Below are positions 935 to 50,757 of a stretch of DNA of 64,000 bases, one piece after another; position 1 is the stretch's first letter; the number at the start of each line of letters is the position of its first letter. The notes below the pieces were generated by a model, which made no database searches, had not been told where the DNA came from, and saw only the letters and a list, made by a program, of their open reading frames with translations. Made by a program: the position numbers and the translations under genes. The stretch lies in IMG/VR virus record IMGVR_UViG_3300018790_000468, positions 1-64,000 of that record; one strand, given 5' to 3'. This stretch comes from a virus.

Positions 935-1375
935 GTGAAGCATTTTATAACTTGGCATGCATTTGATGGTTATGTGCAGGAGCTTGCACAACACATCAAA
1001 CAAAGCATGGACACTGATCTGCACGACATAGTGGGTGTGTCTCGAGGTGGGTTGGTGCTGGCTGCAGCACTCAGTTATGCCTTGAACATAAAAAATGTGC
1101 ATAGTGTTGGCATAAGAAGTTACACTACCAACAATGATCAGCAAGATATTCAAGTGTACCAGCACCTGAATCTTGGCGATTTGAGACATCATGTGCTGGT
1201 TGTGGATGATGTTTCTGACACAGGCAACACATTCCTGCATCTGCAAAAACTACTCATCAACAAACAAGTCACCACTGCAAGCTTGGCCACAAAGTGCGAC
1301 ACCAAGTTGGTACCAGACCACAGTGCATTGCAGCTGGATTCCAGTATTTGGATTGTATTTCCTTGGGATAAATAG
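935..1375 (+). CDS. Type I phosphoribosyltransferase-like protein
   Basis: A 146-residue protein of the PRTase fold. The PRPP-binding motif VLVVDDVSDTGNT is clear near residues 88-100, and an upstream IVGVSRGGLVLAA segment fits the PPi loop. The family (xanthine/hypoxanthine-type PRTases) transfers phosphoribose from PRPP to a base in nucleotide salvage. Substrate cannot be told from sequence. The GTG start is chosen because it sits 6 bases after a TATCAT box with a TTGAAT box 16 bases further up, and it gives a full-length family protein. It may salvage purines for phage DNA synthesis, but there is no context to prove this. Confidence 0.75.
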   Translation: MKHFITWHAFDGYVQELAQHIKQSMDTDLHDIVGVSRGGLVLAAALSYALNIKNVHSVGIRSYTTNNDQQDIQVYQHLNLGDLRHHVLVVDDVSDTGNTFLHLQKLLINKQVTTASLATKCDTKLVPDHSALQLDSSIWIVFPWDK

Positions 1376-16342: not shown

Positions 16343-17173
16343 ATGCTAATGAAAGTATCACATGAAACGCCTGTGTCTCTGTTGGAATATTCAAAGACTT
16401 ACAATGATTTTGACTACTGTCTGGTGCATCTGTTGCATGAAAATGTGGGGTCACCTCAACAGTTAGATTATTATAGTTTCTATAAATTTGGCAGAACTCT
16501 TCACAACAGAGAGGTGTTGCTGGACAATTCCATATTTGAACTTGGCAAAGCTTTTGATCCAGTGCAATTTCATAAATCTGTGCTGGACATTGAGCCAAAC
16601 ATGTACATTGTGCCAGATGTGCTGGAGGATATGCAAGGCACTGTGCACAGTTTCAAAGAGTTTGGTGACAAGAGAGATGACATAAGAAATGCATTTCAAA
16701 CAAAAGCCATTGGTGCCATCCAAGGTAAGAACTGGCATGAGCTCCAAGAGTGTTACAAGTACATGTCTGAAAATGCAGACATGATTGCCATCAGTTTCGA
16801 TTTTAGCTATTACCAGATCACGGGAGAGGGTGAGAACCCATTGGAGAGATGGTGCTCTGGCCGGCAACGTTTCATCACAGACTTGATGAACACAGGCATA
16901 TGGGACTGGAACAAGCCTCACCATTTGCTGGGATGCTCCTTGGCCAAGGAATTCAGGTATTATGTGGACAATGATATTAGCAACATTGTTTCATGTGATA
17001 CCAGCAACCCCATTGTGGCCGCCATCCATGGATTAAAATATGATGCAGATTATGGGCTGACTACCAAGCCTTCAACCAAGCTGGTCGATCTAATTGCACA
17101 TGAATTTACCGTTGATCAACTTGAGCTGTTAAAGTATAATACATCCATGTTCAAGAAGATTATTCGCAGATGA
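16343..17173 (+). CDS. dpdA: DpdA-like DNA-guanine transglycosylase
   Basis: 276 residues of the tRNA-guanine transglycosylase superfamily in its short phage DpdA form. Matching blocks are LLDNSIFELGKAF (about 60-72, with the substrate Asp), YIVPDVLEDMQGTV (about 88-101), AIGAIQGKN (about 123) and LLGCSLAKEF followed by VSCDTSNPI. DpdA enzymes exchange guanine in DNA for a 7-deazaguanine base and protect phage DNA from restriction. Its stop overlaps the next gene, a formyltransferase, by 4 bases. folE, queD, queE and queF are elsewhere in this window. The start lies 6 bases after a TATAAT box; a second ATG two codons on is possible. The subfamily (DpdA1/2/3) is not decided. Confidence 0.75.
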   Translation: MLMKVSHETPVSLLEYSKTYNDFDYCLVHLLHENVGSPQQLDYYSFYKFGRTLHNREVLLDNSIFELGKAFDPVQFHKSVLDIEPNMYIVPDVLEDMQGTVHSFKEFGDKRDDIRNAFQTKAIGAIQGKNWHELQECYKYMSENADMIAISFDFSYYQITGEGENPLERWCSGRQRFITDLMNTGIWDWNKPHHLLGCSLAKEFRYYVDNDISNIVSCDTSNPIVAAIHGLKYDADYGLTTKPSTKLVDLIAHEFTVDQLELLKYNTSMFKKIIRR

Positions 17174-17742
17174 AGCGTCCTTGGGTTGCATTTTTTAGCC
17201 AAACGGGAACAGAGATTCAACAGCTATGCAACAAGCTTGGCACATATCCAGATTTGATTGTTACCAATCAACATCAACAGGGGAAAATTAACAAAGATTT
17301 GCTCACTGTTGCAACATCCAGAGCTGTATTATTGAACATGCGCAACTGGGAAGTGTTGCCTGTGAAACCTAGTCTCAAGGATTACACTGACGCATTAGCT
17401 GGGTATGAGGAAAAAGATCCGCTCATCACACTGCATGGCTACCTGCGCATCATACCCAAGGAAATTTGTAACAAGTATGAGATGTACAATCTGCATCCTG
17501 GTCTTATTAATAAGTTTCCAGAACTCAAAGGCTACAACCCACAAGAGCGCGCTTTTATTGATGGATACAAAAGTGCAGGGTGTGTAATTCATAAAGTGAC
17601 TCCTGGTGTTGATGAAGGTGACATCATATCATACAGTGAAATTGATATTGATAGTCTCACACTACCTCAGGTGTACAGTGCATTGCATGCATGTGCACAG
17701 ACACTGTGGCAGTCATTTCTCAGCCCACATGTTGCAGCTTAA
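17170..17742 (+). CDS. dpdN: Formyltransferase, candidate dPreQ1 formyltransferase (DpdN)
   Basis: 190 residues with the PurN/Fmt formyl-transfer fold. The catalytic pattern is visible: YNLHPGLINKFPELKGYNPQ (Asn-X-His) and CVIHKVTPGVDEGDII (Asp). Relatives use 10-formyl-THF as donor. The family alone would suggest GAR or sugar formylation. However, its ATGA overlap with dpdA and the queF gene in the same operon point to N-formylation of preQ1 in DNA, the reaction assigned to DpdN in phages with 7-(formylamino)methyl-7-deazaguanine. A sugar formyltransferase for the glycan cluster is the main alternative, but that cluster is 12 kb away. Confidence 0.65.
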   Translation: MKRPWVAFFSQTGTEIQQLCNKLGTYPDLIVTNQHQQGKINKDLLTVATSRAVLLNMRNWEVLPVKPSLKDYTDALAGYEEKDPLITLHGYLRIIPKEICNKYEMYNLHPGLINKFPELKGYNPQERAFIDGYKSAGCVIHKVTPGVDEGDIISYSEIDIDSLTLPQVYSALHACAQTLWQSFLSPHVAA

Positions 17743-17783: not shown

Positions 17784-18152
17784 ATGAATAAAGAACATGT
17801 GCATGACGGTGACGCTGAAATTGTAAATGTTGTAGAGAATACATACCCACAGACATGTGATGAATTTAAAAAGATACAACTGGAACAGTACACAGTTTTT
17901 TGCAAGAAACAGAATGACTATGGTCCTCATAACATAAGCCTGGGATCTGACTTGAAGCAACAAGAAGACAGAGAAGCATCCATCTCTGCCATTGTGGTGC
18001 GGTTGAATGATAAAATACAGCGACTCATAAACATGGTGCTGAGAAGAAAGACGTTTGTGGCTGCAAATGAATCCATATTTGATGCATTTTCAGATTCTGC
18101 TGTGTATTGCATCATTGCTGAGATTATCAAGAGAGGCAAGTGGTGCAAGTAG
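17784..18152 (+). CDS. Nucleotide-modification-associated domain 1 (DUF1599-like) protein
   Basis: 122 residues. LEQYTVFCKKQNDYGPHNISLGSDLKQQED (about 30-59) and VVRLNDKIQRLINMVLRR match the Nmad1/DUF1599 family, which is named for its gene association with phage DNA base modification. Its biochemical role is not established. It lies 41 bases after dpdN, and a TATAAT box sits 6 bases before its ATG (-35 box weak), so it may also have its own leaderless transcript. Position supports a part in 7-deazaguanine modification. Confidence 0.65.
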   Translation: MNKEHVHDGDAEIVNVVENTYPQTCDEFKKIQLEQYTVFCKKQNDYGPHNISLGSDLKQQEDREASISAIVVRLNDKIQRLINMVLRRKTFVAANESIFDAFSDSAVYCIIAEIIKRGKWCK

Positions 18153-18153
18153 T

Positions 18154-18324
18154 ATGTCATTAATGCATGCATGGAGAACATGGAATACCAAAGTTAAATC
18201 CCTTGAGGATGAATTGAGTATCATGTTGCAAGAGAACAAGATTCTTTTGGAAGAAATAAAGATGCTTAAAAAGCTTGTGTATGACTTGGAGATAGAGTAT
18301 ACTACCTTGATACGACGCAAATGA
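18154..18324 (+). CDS. Small coiled-coil protein (56 aa)
   Basis: Starts MSLMHAWRTWNTKVKSLEDEL one base after the previous stop. The rest is a continuous heptad-rich helix (LSIMLQENKILLEEIKMLKKL). The ATG is chosen because the longer frame would overlap the Nmad1-like gene. Its stop overlaps the next start (ATGATG). Function unknown; may be an oligomerising partner of its neighbours. Confidence 0.5.
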   Translation: MSLMHAWRTWNTKVKSLEDELSIMLQENKILLEEIKMLKKLVYDLEIEYTTLIRRK

Positions 18325-18911
18325 TGTTCACTTTCACAGGCCCTCAGTGTTCTGGCAAATCTACATTGCTACAAGCATGTAAGAAGCATTATGACAGTCG
18401 GCTTACATATGTGGAAGAGGTTACACGACTCATCAAACGTGAGTTTGATGTGCCTATCAATGAAGAAGGTGCATGTGATATTACTCAGACTTTAATCTTG
18501 AATAAAGAATTTGAGAACCTGTTTATTGGTTACAAGTTGAGTGGCTTCCAAGGTATTCTGCATGATCGATGTTTGTTGGATGGCATGATATATACAAACT
18601 ACTTTGCAGAAAAATATGGCAGGAACAAGTTCCAATTCTCAGAAGCTTTGGGTGCACGGTATTATTATTCACACATACACCGGTATGATCATATCTTTTA
18701 TACCAATCCGCATGATGTGCCCATGGAAGATGATGGTGAAAGAAGCACGTGTGATCATTTCAGATCGCGCATCACTAGCATGTATGAAAATTTCTGGTTG
18801 GATGATATCAATATTCGTGGCAAAGTTACTATATTGCGGGGCACTGTGGCAGAGCGTATGGAGCAGATCAAAGCTAAATTGCATGAGTTGCTGCCAAGTG
18901 CTACACGGTGA
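18321..18911 (+). CDS. P-loop kinase/ATPase (AAA_28 type)
   Basis: 196 residues. Walker A is FTGPQCSGKST (about 5-15). LHDRCLLDGMIYT is the Asp-Arg pair of nucleotide kinases, and a lid-like acidic region (VPMEDDGERS) follows. The overall layout fits AAA_28/NadR-like kinases that phosphorylate nucleosides or nucleotides. It is linked by 4-base overlaps to both neighbours inside the dpdA-queF operon, so a role in nucleotide modification is plausible. It is not clearly homologous to a known dNMP kinase. A second P-loop kinase of the same class lies at 43868. Confidence 0.6.
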   Translation: MMFTFTGPQCSGKSTLLQACKKHYDSRLTYVEEVTRLIKREFDVPINEEGACDITQTLILNKEFENLFIGYKLSGFQGILHDRCLLDGMIYTNYFAEKYGRNKFQFSEALGARYYYSHIHRYDHIFYTNPHDVPMEDDGERSTCDHFRSRITSMYENFWLDDINIRGKVTILRGTVAERMEQIKAKLHELLPSATR

Positions 18912-20233
18912 GTGACATGCCCTTTTGTTTGGCCCCTTGGGCAGGCATACATGCATTGCCAGATGGCCTGGTGTATCCTTGTTGCATGTCCACATTTGAT
19001 CCTGAGAACGCGTTTGGTGACCTGAATGATAATGCAATTGAAGATATCTTGAATTCAGAAAAAGCCAAGCAATTCAGATGCAAGATGATGGCAAATGAGC
19101 CAGATCAGAAGGCTTGCAGCCATTGCGTGAGTGAGGAAAAGACAGGTACAAAGAGTTTTCGTCATCACTGGAATACCAAGTATGCACATGCACTGCCACT
19201 TGTTGACAAGACAGACAAAGATGGTCATTATCATTTTGAAAACTTTCCCTACATTGATATACGGTTGTCCAGTTTGTGCAATTTTAAATGCAGAATGTGT
19301 CACAGTGGTTTGAGCTCTTCTTGGTTGCTAGAGGATGTGAAGTATGCATCAAATTATCAAAATTCTTTCAATTCCAAGACTGGTGTCATTGAAATACCAC
19401 AAAAAGAAAAACTTATCAAATTTATCATTGACAGAATTGAGCATGTGGAAGAAATTGAGTTTGCAGGTGGTGAGCCTTTTCTAATATCTGATTACTTCAC
19501 TTTGATAAAAGAATTTAAAAGGGTAAACAATCTTAACGTTAAAATAAGATTTCATACCAATGCATCATCTTTGTTTTGCAAAGGTGAGTACATACCGGAC
19601 TTACTCAAAGAGTTTAAGAACGTTTTTATCATGCTAAGCATTGATGGTCATGCCCAAGTTAATGACTACATGAGAAAAGGAAGCATATACAAAAAAATTA
19701 TTGCAAATGTGAGTCAGCTCAAGCAAATTGTGCCTCAAGCATTCCTAAGATTGGTACCCACCATTAGCATACCCACCATATACAGTGTGCCTTTCCTGTA
19801 TGCAGACTTTCTACGCAAAGGGTTAGTTGGTCATGCAGACATTGCATGCAGACCATTGTACGGGCCTGAATATCTGAACATACAAACATTGCCGTTGGAG
19901 GACAAGTTAAAAATTCTAAAGTTTTACAATTGCTTCATTGACAATGTGGCAGTTAAGCTTTTGCAGCGTTTCTCAGAAGAAAGTGTTGCATATGTGCGGC
20001 AAGAGTTCTCATCCATCATGAATTTCATGTTGCTCAAGAATCAAATTGAGCCATTCAATAGCAAGAGATTCAAAGAGAGCATCAAGCGACTGGATGTGAG
20101 ACGCAATGAAAGTTATGAAGATATTTTTCCTGAAACTGCACATCTGTTGTCAGGTGATGTGTCAACATACAACTTGGATATCAAATATAATGAGTTGAAG
20201 AACTTTGTAGATGGTATACAATATAACCAATGA
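18908..20233 (+). CDS. Twitch-domain radical SAM protein
   Basis: 441 residues. The radical SAM cluster motif is LSSLCNFKCRMCHSG (about 121-135, CX3CX2C), followed by EFAGGEPFL (SAM-binding GGE). An N-terminal CLAPWAGIHALPDGLVYPCC and a CSHC pair form SPASM/twitch-like cysteine sites for auxiliary clusters. Proteins of this type are frequent in marine phages with unknown targets. The GTG start gives a 4-base overlap (GTGA) with the kinase gene, and its stop overlaps queF by 4 bases. In this operon it may act in base or nucleotide modification, which is inference. Confidence 0.8.
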   Translation: MSDMPFCLAPWAGIHALPDGLVYPCCMSTFDPENAFGDLNDNAIEDILNSEKAKQFRCKMMANEPDQKACSHCVSEEKTGTKSFRHHWNTKYAHALPLVDKTDKDGHYHFENFPYIDIRLSSLCNFKCRMCHSGLSSSWLLEDVKYASNYQNSFNSKTGVIEIPQKEKLIKFIIDRIEHVEEIEFAGGEPFLISDYFTLIKEFKRVNNLNVKIRFHTNASSLFCKGEYIPDLLKEFKNVFIMLSIDGHAQVNDYMRKGSIYKKIIANVSQLKQIVPQAFLRLVPTISIPTIYSVPFLYADFLRKGLVGHADIACRPLYGPEYLNIQTLPLEDKLKILKFYNCFIDNVAVKLLQRFSEESVAYVRQEFSSIMNFMLLKNQIEPFNSKRFKESIKRLDVRRNESYEDIFPETAHLLSGDVSTYNLDIKYNELKNFVDGIQYNQ

Positions 20234-21150
20234 ATACAGAATTAGATAACAGTAATAGTGCCAAGCATTTGGGTAAGATCACTGGGTACAAGTGCACTTA
20301 TGATCCCACATTGTTGGTTCGTGAACCCAGATGCAACAACAGAAAGCATTTGAATATTAGTGATGAAGCACCACCCTTTTGTGGTTATGATATTTGGAAT
20401 GCATATGAGGTGTCTTGCTTGACCAATGAAGGCATGCCCATTGCTGCCATTGCCAAGTGTGTGTACCCTGCAACCAACAAATACATTGTGGAGTCCAAGT
20501 CCATCAAGCTGTACATGAATACTTTCAACATGGAGAAGTTTAGTGGCAGCATAGTTAGCGTTTTGAAGCAGTTGGAACAGGTGATTGCAAAAGACCTATC
20601 CACCCTATTAGAAACTGATGTGCAGGTCTATGTTCGTCTTACAAAAGCGGTTGATGAAGAGATGCATTATCCTCCCTTGTTTCCACGCACTGCATATCCT
20701 ACACTGGAGAACAACATTGATGTGACGACTATCAAGTCCAGAGGTTACAAAGAGGATCCAGAATTACTTGGTTGGTTGCAAGGTGATGCAAGCAAAGTGC
20801 AGCGCTTTCATTCCGCCCTGTTAAAGAGCAATTGCCGGGTCACATCCCAACCAGATTGGGGTGATGTGTACATACATTACAAAGGACCTTATGAGCTTAA
20901 CCAAACCTCTTTGTTGCAATACATTGTGTCATTCAGAGATGAATGTCATTTTCATGAAGAGATATGTGAGACCATTTACAAGCGCTTGCATGATCTGACA
21001 AAACCTGAAGAGCTCATGGTGGCCTGTTTGTATGTGAGACGTGGTGGCATTGACATCAATCCCATCCGAGCCAGTAGCCCAGAGCTGTTGGCACAGAATT
21101 GTGCCATTTGGGACAAGTACAAGTACTTTACTAAAACAGTGCGTCAGTGA
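20230..21150 (+). CDS. queF: 7-cyano-7-deazaguanine reductase QueF (long type)
   Basis: 306 residues, the size of the two-domain QueF of the E. coli type. The QueF motif is IVESKSIKLYMNTFN (about 86-100), and the catalytic block SNCRVTSQPDWGDV places Cys202 and Asp209 seven residues apart, as in E. coli. It uses NADPH to reduce preQ0 to preQ1. Being last in the dpdA-dpdN operon, it supplies the aminomethyl base that a formyltransferase would need, which strengthens the fdPreQ1 prediction. Convergent with the gene at 21151, ending one base before it. Confidence 0.88.
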   Translation: MNTELDNSNSAKHLGKITGYKCTYDPTLLVREPRCNNRKHLNISDEAPPFCGYDIWNAYEVSCLTNEGMPIAAIAKCVYPATNKYIVESKSIKLYMNTFNMEKFSGSIVSVLKQLEQVIAKDLSTLLETDVQVYVRLTKAVDEEMHYPPLFPRTAYPTLENNIDVTTIKSRGYKEDPELLGWLQGDASKVQRFHSALLKSNCRVTSQPDWGDVYIHYKGPYELNQTSLLQYIVSFRDECHFHEEICETIYKRLHDLTKPEELMVACLYVRRGGIDINPIRASSPELLAQNCAIWDKYKYFTKTVRQ

Positions 21151-33491: not shown

Positions 33492-34688
33492 TTATGCAGA
33501 AACTATGCCCCACTTTTCAATGGCTTGGTTATATTCCTTGCCATGTTCCTTATCAATAGCTTGCCGCATAGCCAAGGCACCAGATCGGGAGCCACCTGGA
33601 TGGCCGTGCACTGCACCACCTACATTTGCCATAAAATCATTACCCACCCTGCCAATACAGAAATCAACTAGACCGGGATGCATTCCGCAACTAAGAGCTG
33701 GCACAGTATTGCCTTCTCTTAAAATTTTTAATGCTTGCATCAATTCAATTTCATCATCATTGCTATAACCACCAACCATACCTGCTTGTATTGTATCAGC
33801 ACCCATGAGAGTTGCTAACTGACAAACAACAGGCCAAGCAATAGAGAATCTATGACTTCTATCTGTAAATACTCTGTCGCCGCTTTTTTGAAAATGTAAG
33901 AATACTGGTAAATCTAACTTACGAATGCTATTATAAACCCCCAGACCGCTCCATACATTTATGTGTACTCCGTTGCCGCCCAGTTCGCTTACTTTGCGTA
34001 CCCTATCTAAAACAACATGTGGATCTCCATTAATTGTGTGGCAAAAAGCTATTTTTTTCTTTTGTGTTGAAAGATAGTTAGCTATAACTTCTACCCTTTC
34101 CTCCAACCGGCAACATGCAGGGTTACTCATTATTTCATCTTCTTTAATAAAATCAACACCACCCTCAACAACTTGTTTAACCATTTCAAGCAAAACTTTT
34201 GAAGTGATACCAGTTTTGGGTTTAATAATAGCACCAAAAAGCGGTTTGTTAAATTGATTGGTTAATTTCCTCAATCCTGTGATGCCAAATTTTGGGCCCA
34301 AGAAATGCTGCTTAACACATTCTGGTATTAGCAAATCAATTAATCTGCAGCTAGTGATCAGATCGATATCTACATGACCTCCCATGAGCTGGCACAATAA
34401 ATGGCTAATACCATCGTTATCCCAGTCACTATTGATAACAGGAAATCCTATCTCTACCATACCAGCCTTTTGTTCCTCTAATTTCTTTTCATCCGCAAAT
34501 ATAATACAGCTGTGATTTTCAAACAAGCTGTCTGTCTCCCATTCATTTCTTACATTAGGATTACCAACACTTTGACCTATGGCTAGGTTCCAAGCTGCTG
34601 CTTTGAGAGATTGGTTGCTTGACATTCTATATGTGGCAACAACATATTTGTTGATGTCTACCTCTTCCTTGTTACGGAAAATTTTCAT
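33492..34688 (-). CDS. RuBisCO-like protein (form IV type, large-subunit fold)
   Basis: 398 residues with the whole RuBisCO large-subunit layout. FGAIIKPKTGIT (Lys156, Lys158) matches the K175/K177 loop. GVDFIKEDE (Lys182, Asp184, Glu185) matches the carbamylated K201-D203-E204 metal site. His279 fits H327, ALSCGMH (Ser333) fits S379, and NVGGAVHGHPGG fits the phosphate-binding G403/G404. Loop 6 reads QAGMVGGYSNDDE with no equivalent of Lys334, so it should not fix CO2. Form IV relatives act as enolases, isomerases or decarboxylases on sugar phosphates. It overlaps a cupin gene by 17 bases and lies in a glycan cluster, so a sugar-phosphate reaction is likely. Confidence 0.85.
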   Translation of the reverse strand: MKIFRNKEEVDINKYVVATYRMSSNQSLKAAAWNLAIGQSVGNPNVRNEWETDSLFENHSCIIFADEKKLEEQKAGMVEIGFPVINSDWDNDGISHLLCQLMGGHVDIDLITSCRLIDLLIPECVKQHFLGPKFGITGLRKLTNQFNKPLFGAIIKPKTGITSKVLLEMVKQVVEGGVDFIKEDEIMSNPACCRLEERVEVIANYLSTQKKKIAFCHTINGDPHVVLDRVRKVSELGGNGVHINVWSGLGVYNSIRKLDLPVFLHFQKSGDRVFTDRSHRFSIAWPVVCQLATLMGADTIQAGMVGGYSNDDEIELMQALKILREGNTVPALSCGMHPGLVDFCIGRVGNDFMANVGGAVHGHPGGSRSGALAMRQAIDKEHGKEYNQAIEKWGIVSA

Positions 34689-43864: not shown

Positions 43865-43872
43865 TATTTATC
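43865..43872 (-). promoter_or_regulatory. Late promoter box
   Basis: GATAAATA on the minus strand, 5 bases before the GTG at 43859. Confidence 0.58.
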
Positions 43873-44614
43873 TTTTGGGTATGATAAGATTGCTGTAAAA
43901 GGATTTTTCATGCTTCTCTTTTTCAGATATCTGTTTCTGTGTGTTAATCAACTCCTCCATTTGCGAGGATGCTTGTATATCACTGATTACACTCTGATCT
44001 TCACCAATTAGATCGCCGTTCACATTGAGGTAATACCTCACCAATTGTATTCTTTCCTCAGGCTTGCCAAAAATTTCCACTATGCCAGGTGAATCATCCT
44101 TGGGAAAAAACACAGACACACCTGTTTTTTGAATTTGTTGCACAATGGTTTTGAATATGTTGTCTATTTCTTTGATGTAGACTTCATCTATCTCGCGCTT
44201 GTCATCTTGCACAACGGGCACAGGTGCTACACGTGTTATAGGTGTGAAGAATATGATGTCCAGATAGCGCATAGACTCACGCACCAACGGTATGCACTTG
44301 TCAATGAATTTGTCATCAAATTTATCGGGAGTCTTGCTGTTGCCCCAAAGAGAGTATATGATGTTATCCAAGGGACAACGGTCAAATATGATTTTGCTTC
44401 CCCTTTCACAATTTTTCTGCATGTCATCAATCATGCAGTTTAGTATCTTCCACTGCAGATCTGGTGTGGATTCCTTGCTATGGGGTGCCTTCTCTTGCTT
44501 CAATATTTTTCTGTAACTTGAATCAATCTGTTTGTAGGATGGCCATTCCTTTATGAAATCATTTATGAAGGTTGTTTTGCCTTGACAAGCGGATCCAGAT
44601 ACAGCAATTCTCAT
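43868..44614 (-). CDS. P-loop kinase/ATPase (AAA_28/dNMP kinase-like)
   Basis: 248 residues from the ATG giving MRIAVSGSACQGKTTFINDF. Walker A is GSACQGKTT. SKIIFDRCPLDNIIYSLWG has the Asp-Arg of nucleotide kinases. A long charged helical C-terminus (VISDIQASSQMEEL...KQISEKEKHEKS) follows. Similar class to the kinase at 18321. Likely phosphorylates a nucleotide or sugar nucleotide; substrate unknown. A short frame extension upstream (TTG) is not used. Confidence 0.62.
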   Translation of the reverse strand: MRIAVSGSACQGKTTFINDFIKEWPSYKQIDSSYRKILKQEKAPHSKESTPDLQWKILNCMIDDMQKNCERGSKIIFDRCPLDNIIYSLWGNSKTPDKFDDKFIDKCIPLVRESMRYLDIIFFTPITRVAPVPVVQDDKREIDEVYIKEIDNIFKTIVQQIQKTGVSVFFPKDDSPGIVEIFGKPEERIQLVRYYLNVNGDLIGEDQSVISDIQASSQMEELINTQKQISEKEKHEKSFYSNLIIPKR

Positions 44615-44652
44615 AACATATTTTACAGTTAATTTCAATATTTGCAAGCCTG

Positions 44653-44668: not shown

Positions 44669-46117
44669 ATGTGCGGTTTTCTAGTAACAAACAAGCCAGT
44701 GTCAGATGCAGAATTGGACCATGCAAATTTTTATATCAAATTCAGGGGGCCTGATCATACCGAGAAACCAAAAATAGAAAATATTAGCTTCATACACAAC
44801 CTGCTCAGTCTCACAGGAGAATTTAGACCCCAGCCAATTTTTAAAGATAATATAGCTGTGGTCTATAACGGTGAAATTTATAATTTTAAGGAATTAGATA
44901 AAGATGCAAAATCAGACGGTGATGTAATTATTCCACTGTACAAAGAATATGGTGCCAATTTTCTTGATAAACTTGATGGTGAGTTCTCCATAGTGCTTAT
45001 TGATTTTAATACAAACAAAGCAATATTAGCTGTTGACACCTTTGAAACAAAACCTCTGTATGTTGCACACAAGGGCCCATACTTTGGTGCTGCATCTCTG
45101 AGAAGCGGTTTAGTAAGGCTGGGATTCAAACATATAAGAGAATTGAGATGCAATACAGGTATAATATATAATATAAAGTCACTAGCAGTTGAGGACATAT
45201 TTGAAATACATAAGTTTGATGTTGAAAATGAGCACAAGAAAACCTTTGATGATTGGCATAATGCCTTTGAAGCAGCAGTTTTGAAGCGGCTAAAATATGT
45301 GGATCTTAAGAAAACTGGAGTTGGTCTGCACTTAAGTGAGGGTCATGACAGTGGCTCTATTGCAGCGTGCCTTAAAAAATACAACCTTTCGGATGATATC
45401 TTAATACATTCTTTCATAACACAGGATATGCATCCTGAAGTCTTGAGGTGGAGACATGGGCTTGATCAGGATACTTTGCCAAAGAATGGCAGTGGAGAAA
45501 TTTTTAAATCTCCAAATTTTAAACGATCCATACTTGATAGTATAAGAGAGGAGGATTTTGTTTTGAGCAATATTTTATATAAGAAAAGAGTTGAGGATTT
45601 TGATTATTTTACAATGACACCCGAAGCAAAGCTGGAAGTAAGAAATTCCTACTATCATTTCACAAGAAATATGTACCATCTTATATACAGAGCTAGATTG
45701 AAACATAGTTGCAGAATAGGGCTGGGTGGTTATGGTGGTGATGGTGTGTCAAGTGCGTGGGTAAATAAAATTTATAAGAAATATGGAAGCATATGGCCTA
45801 TTATTAATTTCAGGGATAACTCGATGTATCTATCAGATATAATAGCAGGTTCTCTGGGAGTTGAAGTAAGAAACCCTTACATGGATAAAGCATTATGGCA
45901 GGAGTCTTTCTGGATGGATAAATCTGTCTATAGAAATGAAAACAATAATCATAAACCACCATTGCATGACTATCTTGAGAAAGAGAAATTTCCATTTTAT
46001 AAGAGAGATAAAAACAACGATATAGAGTTCTTCTGGATTGGATTCGGTAATTTTCTGAACTTTAACTCAGTACATAAAGACCCTATTTATGTACCGCAAC
46101 CTGATATTACACTTTAA
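44669..46117 (+). CDS. AsnB-like glutamine amidotransferase with altered PP-loop
   Basis: 482 residues. The start is fixed by the need for Cys2: MCGFLVTNK begins an Ntn-type class II glutaminase domain, with FRGPDHT (about 25-31) and VYNGEIYNF (about 65-73). The second half is an asparagine-synthetase-type ATP pyrophosphatase domain, but the usual SGG.DS loop reads SEGHDS (223-228). LGGYGGDGVSSAWV is the second conserved loop of AsnB. It would move ammonia from glutamine to an activated acid. Asparagine, a glycan amide or a 7-deazaguanine amide are all possible targets. It converges with queE, overlapping its end. Confidence 0.72.
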   Translation: MCGFLVTNKPVSDAELDHANFYIKFRGPDHTEKPKIENISFIHNLLSLTGEFRPQPIFKDNIAVVYNGEIYNFKELDKDAKSDGDVIIPLYKEYGANFLDKLDGEFSIVLIDFNTNKAILAVDTFETKPLYVAHKGPYFGAASLRSGLVRLGFKHIRELRCNTGIIYNIKSLAVEDIFEIHKFDVENEHKKTFDDWHNAFEAAVLKRLKYVDLKKTGVGLHLSEGHDSGSIAACLKKYNLSDDILIHSFITQDMHPEVLRWRHGLDQDTLPKNGSGEIFKSPNFKRSILDSIREEDFVLSNILYKKRVEDFDYFTMTPEAKLEVRNSYYHFTRNMYHLIYRARLKHSCRIGLGGYGGDGVSSAWVNKIYKKYGSIWPIINFRDNSMYLSDIIAGSLGVEVRNPYMDKALWQESFWMDKSVYRNENNNHKPPLHDYLEKEKFPFYKRDKNNDIEFFWIGFGNFLNFNSVHKDPIYVPQPDITL

Positions 46118-46859
46118 GTGCTTTGTCCCAAATTACAAGCTGCAGACGCGGGCTAAAATTGAACATGTGCTTCTTGCAAAGATCGGCTACCATGGCCGCC
46201 TTTTCTGCTAATTCTGCCCTGCTGCCACAACAAGGCATCAACCATACACGATTCTTTGGCACATTAACGTCAGGGTTGTTTATATACTTCTCCAGGATTT
46301 CCTGCACATCAGATTCACCGCTAACAACAAACTTGAACCCTGACCCATTCTCTGCATGCCACTTTAAAACAGCGGGCTTGTATCTCTTTTCAACAGCATC
46401 CCCATTATTAGACAGTTTTGGTGATGTTGTGAACGTTGCCCTATATTCTGTTAGCCAGGCTTCATCCGGCAGAATGGTTGCATTGGTTTCAAAATCAATA
46501 ACCGGCGTGTATCCAAATCGGTCTGCATACGAGCGCACTAATTTGAGCAATTGCTTCTGTTGAATGAGTGGTTCACCGCCAGTGATCTTCCATATGGCAC
46601 CCTCGCGCAACTTGCACTCATATCCCTCTTGCAACAACAGATCCAATATGCTGTCCAAAGTCAACTTGTTCTTTACAGACCAGCTCACAAAGCTGTCACA
46701 ACCATGTGGTGCAGCTGCAGAAGCAAATCCTTTGCATGTGAGGTTGCACATAGAAAGGCGCATGAACACAGAAGGCATGCCGGCATATTCACCTTCACCT
46801 TCAATGGTGTAAAAAATCTTATCATCACTAAGAAATAGTGTATCAATTGCATCAGTCAT
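46107..46859 (-). CDS. queE: 7-carboxy-7-deazaguanine synthase QueE (radical SAM)
   Basis: 250 residues. FYTIEGEGEYAGMPSVFMRLSMCNLTC is the QueE start (Gln/Glu-Gly-Glu and the cluster region), WKITGGEPLIQ the SAM-binding GGEP, and VIDFETNAT matches QueE. The cluster cysteines are spaced CX3CX11C rather than CX3CX2C, an insertion also known in variant QueE proteins. It converts 6-carboxytetrahydropterin to 7-carboxy-7-deazaguanine, between QueD and QueC. It has its own early-type promoter, with the ATG 6 bases after TATTAT. Confidence 0.8.
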   Translation of the reverse strand: MTDAIDTLFLSDDKIFYTIEGEGEYAGMPSVFMRLSMCNLTCKGFASAAAPHGCDSFVSWSVKNKLTLDSILDLLLQEGYECKLREGAIWKITGGEPLIQQKQLLKLVRSYADRFGYTPVIDFETNATILPDEAWLTEYRATFTTSPKLSNNGDAVEKRYKPAVLKWHAENGSGFKFVVSGESDVQEILEKYINNPDVNVPKNRVWLMPCCGSRAELAEKAAMVADLCKKHMFNFSPRLQLVIWDKALKV

Positions 46860-47905: not shown

Positions 47906-48544
47906 TCAAGTGCCCCAAGAGGTTCCTGCATAAGGAATGCTTATGCCGCGTGTCACTTTGTTGGTGAGCGGTGCACCAGACTCAATGTTCAGACCTGCAT
48001 TCACTGCAGTTACATTCTGTAGTGCAGGTGGTATGGTAGTTGTAACAGTTACTGCAGCTGCATTGCCTGAAGCTATACTGGTAGCGGTATGTGCAGTTTG
48101 TGTGGCTGTGGCAATTGCAATTGCAGAATTCTTCTCATGTTCCCACACTTCCACCTGTTTAACCCAGCAACGACCATTGGTAAGATGTCTCACATGTCGA
48201 TCAGCTGTCTCCAAGCACCATTCTGCAGTACGCTCGATGCCTACTCCATTTTCCATGATGCGTGGTAATGCTGCACCTGCATGACCCAATGCAATGAATG
48301 TATCAAGTAGAGGATCATCACCTGCAATGCATAATGTATGATCAAATTGATGTTCTAATGCTTGCTTCAATTCCTTGAGACCACCAAAATCTACAACCCA
48401 ATTTCTTGCATCTAAGTGTTCACACTCAAACCAAAATTTTGCCACCAATCGGTAACCATGCACATATTTGCAATGACTGTCTGCTCTCCATTGTCTGAAT
48501 GCGCAACTTCCCAGCTCTATAATCTTTGTACTTTCATGTTTCAT
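47906..48544 (-). CDS. queD: 6-carboxy-5,6,7,8-tetrahydropterin synthase QueD (PTPS family)
   Basis: 212 residues. FRQWRADSHCKYVHGYRLVAKFWFE is the metal and catalytic-Cys region of the FRQW-type QueD group, with HGY in place of the usual HGH. ARNWVVDFGGLKELKQALEHQFDHTLCI supplies the downstream Asp/His motif. The C-terminal about 70 residues (Ala/Thr/Val-rich) are an extra tail. It makes 6-carboxytetrahydropterin from dihydroneopterin triphosphate, the product of FolE (50110). It has two tandem early-type promoters. Confidence 0.82.
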   Translation of the reverse strand: MKHESTKIIELGSCAFRQWRADSHCKYVHGYRLVAKFWFECEHLDARNWVVDFGGLKELKQALEHQFDHTLCIAGDDPLLDTFIALGHAGAALPRIMENGVGIERTAEWCLETADRHVRHLTNGRCWVKQVEVWEHEKNSAIAIATATQTAHTATSIASGNAAAVTVTTTIPPALQNVTAVNAGLNIESGAPLTNKVTRGISIPYAGTSWGT

Positions 48545-50109: not shown

Positions 50110-50757
50110 ATGTCTACAAAAGTATTAATTCCATACGCAAATCATAACCACCCTCGATCTGAACAAGAGAAGCAGGAGATCATTGCACATGCTGCAAAAG
50201 CTTATGAAGCATATCTGGATGCATTGTGCATTGATTGGCGCAATGATCCCAACAGTTCCAACACACCACACCGAGTGGCCAAAGCCTTTGTGGAAGATCT
50301 GGCCAGTGGTTGTTACAGTACCCCGCCCAAGGTGACTGCGTTTGCAAATGTGGACCAGTATGATGGCATTGTGTGTCAGAACAACATCAGAGTAACCTCA
50401 CTTTGCTCTCATCACCATGTAGCGTTCACTGGTGTGGCACATGTGGCATACATACCTGCACGTGATGGCAAGGTCATTGGATTGAGCAAGCTTAATCGCA
50501 TTGTGGACTGGTTTTCACGCAGACCACAGGTGCAAGAAAATCTCACCATGCAAATTCATACACATATTGATGAAGCTTGTGTGAAGAACAATGGTGTAGC
50601 AGTCATGATTGAAGCCAAGCATTCATGTTGTTCCAACCGCGGCATCAAGCATGATTCTACTATGCGCACTGCGCGCATGTCTGGTGCATTCCTGGACAAT
50701 GGCGACAACTCTCGTTCAGAGTTTTACAAGTTCATTGAATTTGCACAAGTGCATTAA
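50110..50757 (+). CDS. folE: GTP cyclohydrolase I (FolE type)
   Basis: 215 residues. The zinc and catalytic block SLCSHHHVAFTGVAHVAYIP, GLSKLNRIVDWFSRRPQVQENL and EAKHSCCSNRGIKHDST are all present, giving the two cysteines and the histidine that bind zinc. FolE makes dihydroneopterin triphosphate from GTP, the first step to 7-deazaguanines (with QueD, QueE) and also to folates and the 10-formyl-THF used by formyltransferases. An early-type promoter predicts a leaderless message. Confidence 0.9.
   Translation: MSTKVLIPYANHNHPRSEQEKQEIIAHAAKAYEAYLDALCIDWRNDPNSSNTPHRVAKAFVEDLASGCYSTPPKVTAFANVDQYDGIVCQNNIRVTSLCSHHHVAFTGVAHVAYIPARDGKVIGLSKLNRIVDWFSRRPQVQENLTMQIHTHIDEACVKNNGVAVMIEAKHSCCSNRGIKHDSTMRTARMSGAFLDNGDNSRSEFYKFIEFAQVH

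What the first reader, a model, noticed from the sequence alone, without database searches (positions are those of the whole stretch)
16343..17742. DpdA and a formyltransferase fused into one translational unit by an ATGA overlap
The dpdA stop and formyltransferase start overlap by 4 bases, which links their dose. The formyltransferase keeps the Asn-X-His and Asp catalytic pattern (NLHPG, VDEGDII) but is short (190 aa). It is a good candidate for a DpdN that acts on DNA or on free preQ1 and would be a useful new test case.
Basis: partly seen in the sequence, partly recalled or inferred. Interest (0 to 1): 0.8.

Follow-up and report, generated by a model that had tools for sequence, protein, structure and literature searches.

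The report
Phage preQ1 formyltransferase beside DpdA
A virus carries, side by side, the gene that puts a modified guanine into its DNA and a small enzyme that most likely caps that base with a formyl group; in some relatives a different capping enzyme sits in the same place.

Summary
In detail: dpdA (16343-17173) and a formyltransferase gene (17170-17742) overlap by ATGA. The overlap is ordinary: 13 of 56 neighbouring same-strand ORF pairs in the window overlap by 4 bases. The first gene has the TGT/DpdA fold. The second is a PurN-like formyltransferase with the catalytic Asn/His/Asp but altered substrate residues, outside the Fmt/ArnA clade. The virus record also encodes FolE, QueD, QueE, QueF and QueC, so it can make preQ1. 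Best reading: DpdN, a preQ1 formyltransferase; a new member of a known kind, closest to Flavobacterium phage immuto. Free preQ1 or DNA as substrate stays open.

Two results go beyond the finding. (1) The slot after dpdA holds DpdN in 137, nothing in 32 and a GNAT acetyltransferase in 5 of 174 distinct loci, predicting N-acetyl-preQ1 DNA. (2) A kinase is in 18 of 18 chosen records with this DpdA type (4 were reached through the kinase) and a guanine/xanthine-type phosphoribosyltransferase in 15 of 18, against 1 (weak) and 0 of 5 other deazaguanine viruses; recycling of released guanine is proposed.

The parts
16343..17173 (+). dpdA: DNA-guanine transglycosylase-like gene, 276 aa
   Evidence: predicted structure matches TGT and DpdA 7ui4, Z about 18; 40% identical to the annotated DNA guanine transglycosylase of phage immuto
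17170..17742 (+). dpdN candidate: PurN-like formyltransferase, 190 aa
   Evidence: Pfam Formyl_trans_N 1.2e-16; PurN fold Z 20.8; N107, H109, D148 conserved
17170..17173 (+). ATGA overlap of dpdA stop and dpdN start
   Evidence: sequence
17784..18152 (+). small conserved gene, weakly DUF1599-like
   Evidence: weak Pfam match in 4 of 9 members; usual neighbour in the window's clade
18321..18911 (+). AAA_28 kinase, constant partner of this DpdA type
   Evidence: Pfam AAA_28 4.2e-15; linkage
18908..20233 (+). radical SAM/SPASM gene inserted in the run, not core
   Evidence: Pfam, NF033640 over its cut-off; present in few relatives
20230..21150 (+). queF: preQ0 to preQ1 reductase
   Evidence: Pfam QueF_N 2.8e-32 and QueF; TIGR03138 257 bits, cut-off 293; 45% identical to immuto QueF
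46107..46859 (-). queE-like radical SAM gene
   Evidence: five NCBIfam QueE models match, none over its cut-off, best 1.5e-13; immuto QueE 21%, E 2e-9
47906..48544 (-). queD
   Evidence: Pfam PTPS 1.9e-17; 42% identical to immuto QueD
50110..50757 (+). folE
   Evidence: Pfam GTP_cyclohydroI 5.7e-48
935..1375 (+). purine phosphoribosyltransferase, nearest xanthine/guanine type
   Evidence: NF006613 7.2e-24, 84 bits, cut-off 138

Best explanation
The phage makes preQ0 from GTP (FolE, QueD, QueE, QueC) and reduces it to preQ1 (QueF). DpdA exchanges guanine for the 7-deazaguanine base. The formyltransferase (DpdN) moves a formyl group from 10-formyl-tetrahydrofolate to the aminomethyl nitrogen of preQ1 with the PurN-type Asn/His/Asp site, so the finished base is 7-(formylamino)methyl-7-deazaguanine. 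Shown here: fold, catalytic residues, loss of the PurN substrate residues, gene linkage. Inferred: that preQ1 is the acceptor and 10-formyl-THF the donor. Open, with a slight lean to the first: DpdN acts on the free base (bare PurN core without an added nucleic-acid domain) or on dPreQ1 in DNA. The overlap probably couples translation, as for many neighbours in this genome.
For: PurN fold over the whole length. N107 and H109 in 67 of 67, D148 in 66 of 67 homologues; the PurN position N13 is Glu in 66 of 67 and E173 Ala/Ser/Gly in 67 of 67; W180 in 67 of 67 (mapping). Linkage of DpdN with dpdA (87 of 89), kinase (85 of 89) and queF (82 of 89), exceptions at contig ends. Same order in phage immuto. 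Complete preQ1 gene set. PurN model 50 bits against a cut-off of 150. Only formyltransferase-domain match in the record.
Against: No activity is shown for any homologue in what I could read; the 2023 paper on such bases is not held. DpdA motif residues barely differ with or without DpdN (119 against 28 sequences; of 44 motif columns only 88 and 218 shift), so DpdA gives no sign of adapting to a capped base. L163 has DpdN but no dpdA in 4.9 kb upstream. D148 is Ala in one homogue (L092) and E15 Ala in another (L044).
Confidence: 0.75

Rival explanations
1. It is a phage PurN (GAR formyltransferase) that boosts purine synthesis, as in cyanophages, and lies beside dpdA because both serve nucleotide metabolism.
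For: PurN is the nearest family by sequence and fold; cyanophages carry PurN.
Against: TIGR00639 50 bits, cut-off 150; positions that I recall as binding GAR are changed in nearly every member; own clade, UFBoot 100; linkage to dpdA and queF.
Confidence: 0.08
2. It is a sugar N-formyltransferase of a surface-glycan pathway.
For: Same fold: ArnA Z 17.6, other sugar formyltransferases Z 15.7-16.1; weak profile matches, 29.9 bits.
Against: PurN scores higher in sequence and fold; the Fmt/ArnA clade (UFBoot 98) excludes it; slot conserved in 137 of 174 distinct loci.
Confidence: 0.02
3. It formylates a preQ1-derived deoxynucleotide: DpdA swaps the base at the nucleotide level, the kinase raises it to the triphosphate and the polymerase builds it in.
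For: The nucleoside/nucleotide-type kinase is a constant partner of this DpdA. A modified-dGTP route had been proposed for Campylobacter phages (PMC6884629, passages), which have this DpdA and kinase side by side.
Against: TGT-fold enzymes are known on nucleic acids; the kinase is equally explained by guanine salvage; its substrate is unknown.
Confidence: 0.12

Closest known systems
dpdA - formyltransferase - kinase - queF run of Flavobacterium phage vB_FspM_immuto_2-6A (NC_055915)
   Same: Homologous DpdA (40%), formyltransferase (45%), kinase (25%) and QueF (45%) in the same order
   Different: No dpdA/formyltransferase overlap (a small ORF lies between), no radical SAM gene; queD, queE, folE lie just upstream
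DpdN, predicted dPreQ1 formyltransferase, of Cui et al. 2023 (10.1093/nar/gkad657; recalled, paper not held)
   Same: Proposed chemistry and context, as recalled
   Different: Defining sequences and measured phage could not be checked
PurN (GAR formyltransferase), also in cyanophages
   Same: Fold and catalytic residues
   Different: Changed substrate residues, separate clade, far under the PurN cut-off
DpdA - kinase pair of Campylobacter phages CP220 and CC_R7
   Same: Homologous DpdA (41% and 26%) directly followed by the homologous kinase
   Different: No formyltransferase or QueF annotated in the stretches read

Membership tests
DpdN (preQ1/dPreQ1 formyltransferase; definition recalled) | Formyltransferase fold with Asn-x-His and Asp catalytic residues | tested here: met
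DpdN (preQ1/dPreQ1 formyltransferase; definition recalled) | Encoded with DpdA and QueF | tested here: met
   window genes; 87 and 82 of 89 distinct homologues
DpdN (preQ1/dPreQ1 formyltransferase; definition recalled) | Formylated preQ1 in the DNA / activity on preQ1 | not testable with these tools
   needs biochemistry
PurN | Curated score cut-off of TIGR00639 | tested here: not met
   50 bits, cut-off 150.1
PurN | E. coli PurN N13 and E173 (recalled as GAR contacts) | tested here: not met
   Glu in 66 of 67, Ala/Ser/Gly in 67 of 67
Sugar N-formyltransferase | Groups with ArnA and its relatives | tested here: not met
   excluded from the clade with UFBoot 98; 18 of 67 members, 11 outgroup sequences
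Sugar N-formyltransferase | Sugar-binding residues | not tested
   no residue-level comparison was made
Methionyl-tRNA formyltransferase (Fmt) | Curated cut-off of TIGR00460 and a C-terminal domain | tested here: not met
   36.8 bits, cut-off 201.5; 190 aa against 315 aa for E. coli Fmt
DpdA / TGT superfamily | TGT fold | tested here: met
   Z 18.2-18.3 to TGT and DpdA 7ui4
DpdA / TGT superfamily | Catalytic Asp and Gln positions | tested here: met
   D61, D92, Q127, D219 invariant in 37 sequences; profile alignment to E. coli Tgt joins the Q127 and HLLG motifs, statistically weak
tRNA-type TGT | Zinc motif CxCxxC | tested here: not met
   0 of 37 sequences; E. coli Tgt has it
DpdA3 subfamily (recalled: total guanine replacement) | Complete replacement of guanine in DNA | not testable with these tools
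   only kinship to CP220 (41%); PMC6884629 passages call genomes of Campylobacter phages highly modified by dADG

The most novel reading that the evidence does not exclude
The gene slot between dpdA and the kinase is a swap site for amine-capping enzymes. In four contigs one GNAT acetyltransferase type, and in a fifth contig another, sits there instead of DpdN; the first type overlaps dpdA by ATGA in three of its four contigs and the second by one base. These viruses should carry a new DNA base, 7-(acetylamino)methyl-7-deazaguanine. The cassette would be completed by a guanine sink (phosphoribosyltransferase, kinase and, in some, GMP reductase) that removes the guanine released by DpdA and drives replacement far.
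Probability: 0.4. Interest if true: 0.8.

Novelty: new member of a known kind. Interest (0 to 1): 0.55.

Why it matters
It widens a formyltransferase annotated only as PurN in phage immuto into a large viral family with pocket residues to test (E15, W180). Loci with DpdN, with nothing and with a GNAT in the same slot predict three different finished bases from one machine. The constant kinase and frequent phosphoribosyltransferase offer a testable answer to how such viruses could reach high replacement: recycle the guanine, or make a modified dNTP.

Tried and rejected
Substrate level from charge: DpdA types and E. coli Tgt all have pI 5.3-6.1 and DpdN spans 4.8-9.4, so nothing follows.

Substrate level from DpdA covariation: of 44 motif columns only 88 and 218 shift between sequences with (119) and without (28) DpdN; the columns that differ most lie outside the motifs and the groups are phylogenetically clustered (5 parsimony changes on 147 sequences). 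Inconclusive.

A MazG-like reading of the DUF1599-like gene, to copy the 2-aminoadenine phages: no profile link to the immuto PRA-PH gene (E 0.46), no solved relative, weak Pfam matches. Dropped.

GMP reductase as a general partner: 7 of 18 records and 40 of 155 distinct DpdN loci, none in the window's record. Kept as a feature of part of the family.

Radical SAM gene as core: found in few relatives. Rejected.

Results against the linkage claims: L163 has DpdN, kinase and QueF but no dpdA in 4.9 kb upstream; L222 has dpdA and kinase but no queF in 4.9 kb downstream. Three of 18 records lack the phosphoribosyltransferase match; all 15 matches are under the curated cut-off, and the same model rings in 13 of 14 control genomes, so it shows a purine-type phosphoribosyltransferase rather than a proven guanine enzyme. 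Phage nt-1, a control, has a weak kinase match (E 1.8e-4). The 18 records were chosen by me among larger contigs and isolates; 4 of them (L207, L209 directly, L297, L299 indirectly) were reached through the kinase search, so the independent count for the kinase is 14 of 14. A sixth control (NC_004684) was not in the collection. The DpdA, kinase and DpdN-profile scans kept the best 80 loci each. One GNAT (L296) is just under the Pfam cut-off (19.8, cut-off 20.7), and the fifth GNAT contig's record (15,277 bases) was not searched whole. The QueE assignment rests on models under their cut-offs.

Viral structure library: the only good matches were two giant-virus formyltransferases. Literature searches listed no paper on DpdN, acetylated preQ1 in DNA or guanine salvage with DpdA; most subscription papers are not held, and mostly hit unrelated abbreviations.

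Full report
Observation. The two ORFs and the ATGA overlap are as described. The overlap is ordinary for this genome: 13 of 56 neighbouring same-strand ORF pairs overlap by exactly 4 bases, two more of them in the same gene run. Of 142 distinct homologous pairs 59 have ATGA. Coupled translation is plausible; a fused unit is not shown.

The first gene. No Pfam model matches it convincingly and no NCBIfam model at all. Its predicted structure (pLDDT 93.8) aligns with tRNA-guanine transglycosylases and the DNA preQ0 insertase DpdA 7ui4 at Z 18.2-18.3 over 235-238 residues. It is 40% identical to the 'DNA guanine transglycosylase' of Flavobacterium phage immuto and 41% to a protein of Campylobacter phage CP220; 19 of 50,697 phage records match it. 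D61, D92, Q127 and D219 are invariant in 37 diverse homologues; their roles are inferred from TGT (recalled). The tRNA-type zinc motif is absent (0 of 37).

The second gene. Pfam Formyl_trans_N, 1.2e-16. The model (pLDDT 96.4) aligns over its whole length with PurN (3av3, Z 20.8, 176 residues); ArnA reaches Z 17.6 and other sugar formyltransferases 15.7-16.1. In 67 homologues N107 is present in 67, H109 in 67 and D148 in 66. Two PurN positions that I recall as contacts of its substrate GAR are changed: N13 to Glu in 66 of 67 and E173 to Ala/Ser/Gly in 67 of 67; a Trp is invariant where E. coli PurN has Y177. All NCBIfam models score far under their cut-offs, PurN best. In a maximum-likelihood tree of 18 of the 67 with 11 other formyltransferases the family is one clade (UFBoot 100), outside the clade of Fmt, ArnA and three others (UFBoot 98). 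So: same chemistry, probably another acceptor, not a sugar enzyme by this test.

Surroundings. The same gene run holds a kinase, a radical SAM gene and queF; folE, queD and queE are elsewhere in the window and queC is at 69855-70499 of the 112,223-base virus record. The record has no second formyltransferase-domain match. Immuto has dpdA - small ORF - formyltransferase - kinase - queF.

Relatives. A pattern-based scan of one genome for each of 84,980 prokaryote species found 2 loci, both next to dpdA. Of 89 distinct formyltransferases 87 have dpdA, 85 the kinase and 82 queF within 5 kb; those without have at most 1.3 kb of DNA on that side. Of 76 distinct dpdA from the DpdA scan 71 have the kinase; four of the other five end within 1.9 kb, and in L119 the kinase lies just over 5 kb away. 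Anchored on the kinase, 71 of 77 have dpdA and 76 of 77 queF; L163 (no dpdA) and L222 (no queF) are not explained by contig ends.

Mechanism. Best account: DpdN formylates the preQ1 amine with 10-formyl-THF, giving 7-(formylamino)methyl-7-deazaguanine in DNA. This is inferred from fold, residues and linkage. Whether the acceptor is the free base or dPreQ1 in DNA is undecided. The bare PurN core leans to a small molecule. DpdA motifs hardly change with presence of DpdN (119 against 28 sequences), which leans to DNA unless the pocket tolerates the cap, as human TGT tolerates large N-substituents (PMC8136771, passages).

The slot. In 174 distinct dpdA loci with a kinase downstream, the stretch between holds DpdN in 137, no ORF of 90 aa or more in 32, one GNAT type in 4 and another in 1. 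Of the five GNATs four pass the Pfam Acetyltransf_1 cut-off and one is just under it. The two types share 24% over 100 residues, E 0.001 for the single comparison. Three of the four genes of the first type start in an ATGA overlap with dpdA, the fourth two bases after the stop; the second type overlaps by one base. Four of the five records were searched whole (184,542, 137,746, 64,682 and 28,497 bases): no DpdN, while the positive control was found; QueC is in 2 and QueD in 3 of the four. A last scan of IMG/VR found no more of the first type and no isolate phage matches it. The simplest reading is an acetyl cap in place of the formyl cap; a GNAT acting on something else is not excluded. Searches listed no report of it, in a library that lacks most subscription papers.

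The kinase and guanine. A tblastn of the kinase against 50,697 phage records hits 19 records, 15 of Campylobacter and 4 of Flavobacterium phages: the same phages that match DpdA, phage IBB_35 through another record of its split genome, and CC_R7 first through a second kinase copy. By profile it is in 18 of 18 chosen records with this DpdA (14 of 14 if those reached through the kinase are left out) and weakly in 1 of 5 other deazaguanine viruses (9g, CAjan, nt-1, HVTV-1, Dp-1). A purine phosphoribosyltransferase nearest the xanthine/guanine type is in 15 of 18 against 0 of 5, all under the curated cut-off; of five scanned in NCBIfam four have that model first. In L145, L195 and L211 it lies in the run queE-PRT-queD-folE-dpdA-dpdN-kinase-queF. 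A GMP reductase-like gene (332 bits, cut-off 344) or IMPDH-domain relative is in 7 of 18 against 0 of 5. Base exchange releases one guanine per insertion. For human TGT, guanine has kinetic constants like queuine's and can displace preQ0 but not preQ1 (PMC8136771, passages). I therefore propose that these genes remove or recycle guanine (about 0.45). The rival is a modified-dNTP route, mentioned as proposed for Campylobacter phages (PMC6884629, passages) (about 0.2 for the kinase's role). The kinase's substrate is unknown; its nearest solved relatives include deoxynucleoside, thymidylate and NadR-type kinases.

Papers: PMC6884629, PMC8136771, PMC12783734, PMC13329287 and PMC11515303 were seen as passages. 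The 2023 paper 10.1093/nar/gkad657 was not held; the names DpdN and DpdA3 and their meaning are recalled.

Verdict. The finding is real; its special point, the overlap, is ordinary; the candidate DpdN is well supported and of a known kind. The bolder results lie in its relatives.

Noticed in passing
L213/L295, L296, L297, L298/L304; L221/L299: GNAT acetyltransferase genes in the DpdN slot between dpdA and the kinase; whole records of four of five contigs lack DpdN.
   Followed up: yes
window 18321-18911; records: AAA_28 kinase is a constant partner of this DpdA type, with or without DpdN and QueF.
   Followed up: partly
window 43868-44647 (-): A second kinase of the same family; a second copy is also in nine other records of the 23 searched, CP220 and CC_R7 included.
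   Followed up: no
L007:6572-7525, L066:7381-8334, L073:7405-8376 and others: GMP reductase-like gene between dpdN and the DUF1599-like gene in part of the window's clade.
   Followed up: partly
L143:8868-9896 (phage CP220): HD phosphohydrolase domain joined to an AAA_33 kinase domain just upstream of dpdA.
   Followed up: no
L012:4425-6002 (same contig as L076): Tryptophan-halogenase-like flavoenzyme between dpdA and dpdN.
   Followed up: no
window 18908-20233: Twitch-domain radical SAM protein inserted between kinase and queF.
   Followed up: partly
window 33492-34688 (-): ORF that looks by eye like a RuBisCO-like protein; not tested.
   Followed up: no
L002:10332-10853 (phage immuto): PRA-PH (NTP pyrophosphohydrolase-type) gene two genes upstream of dpdA, conserved in 29 ORFs of the immuto-type loci.
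   Followed up: partly
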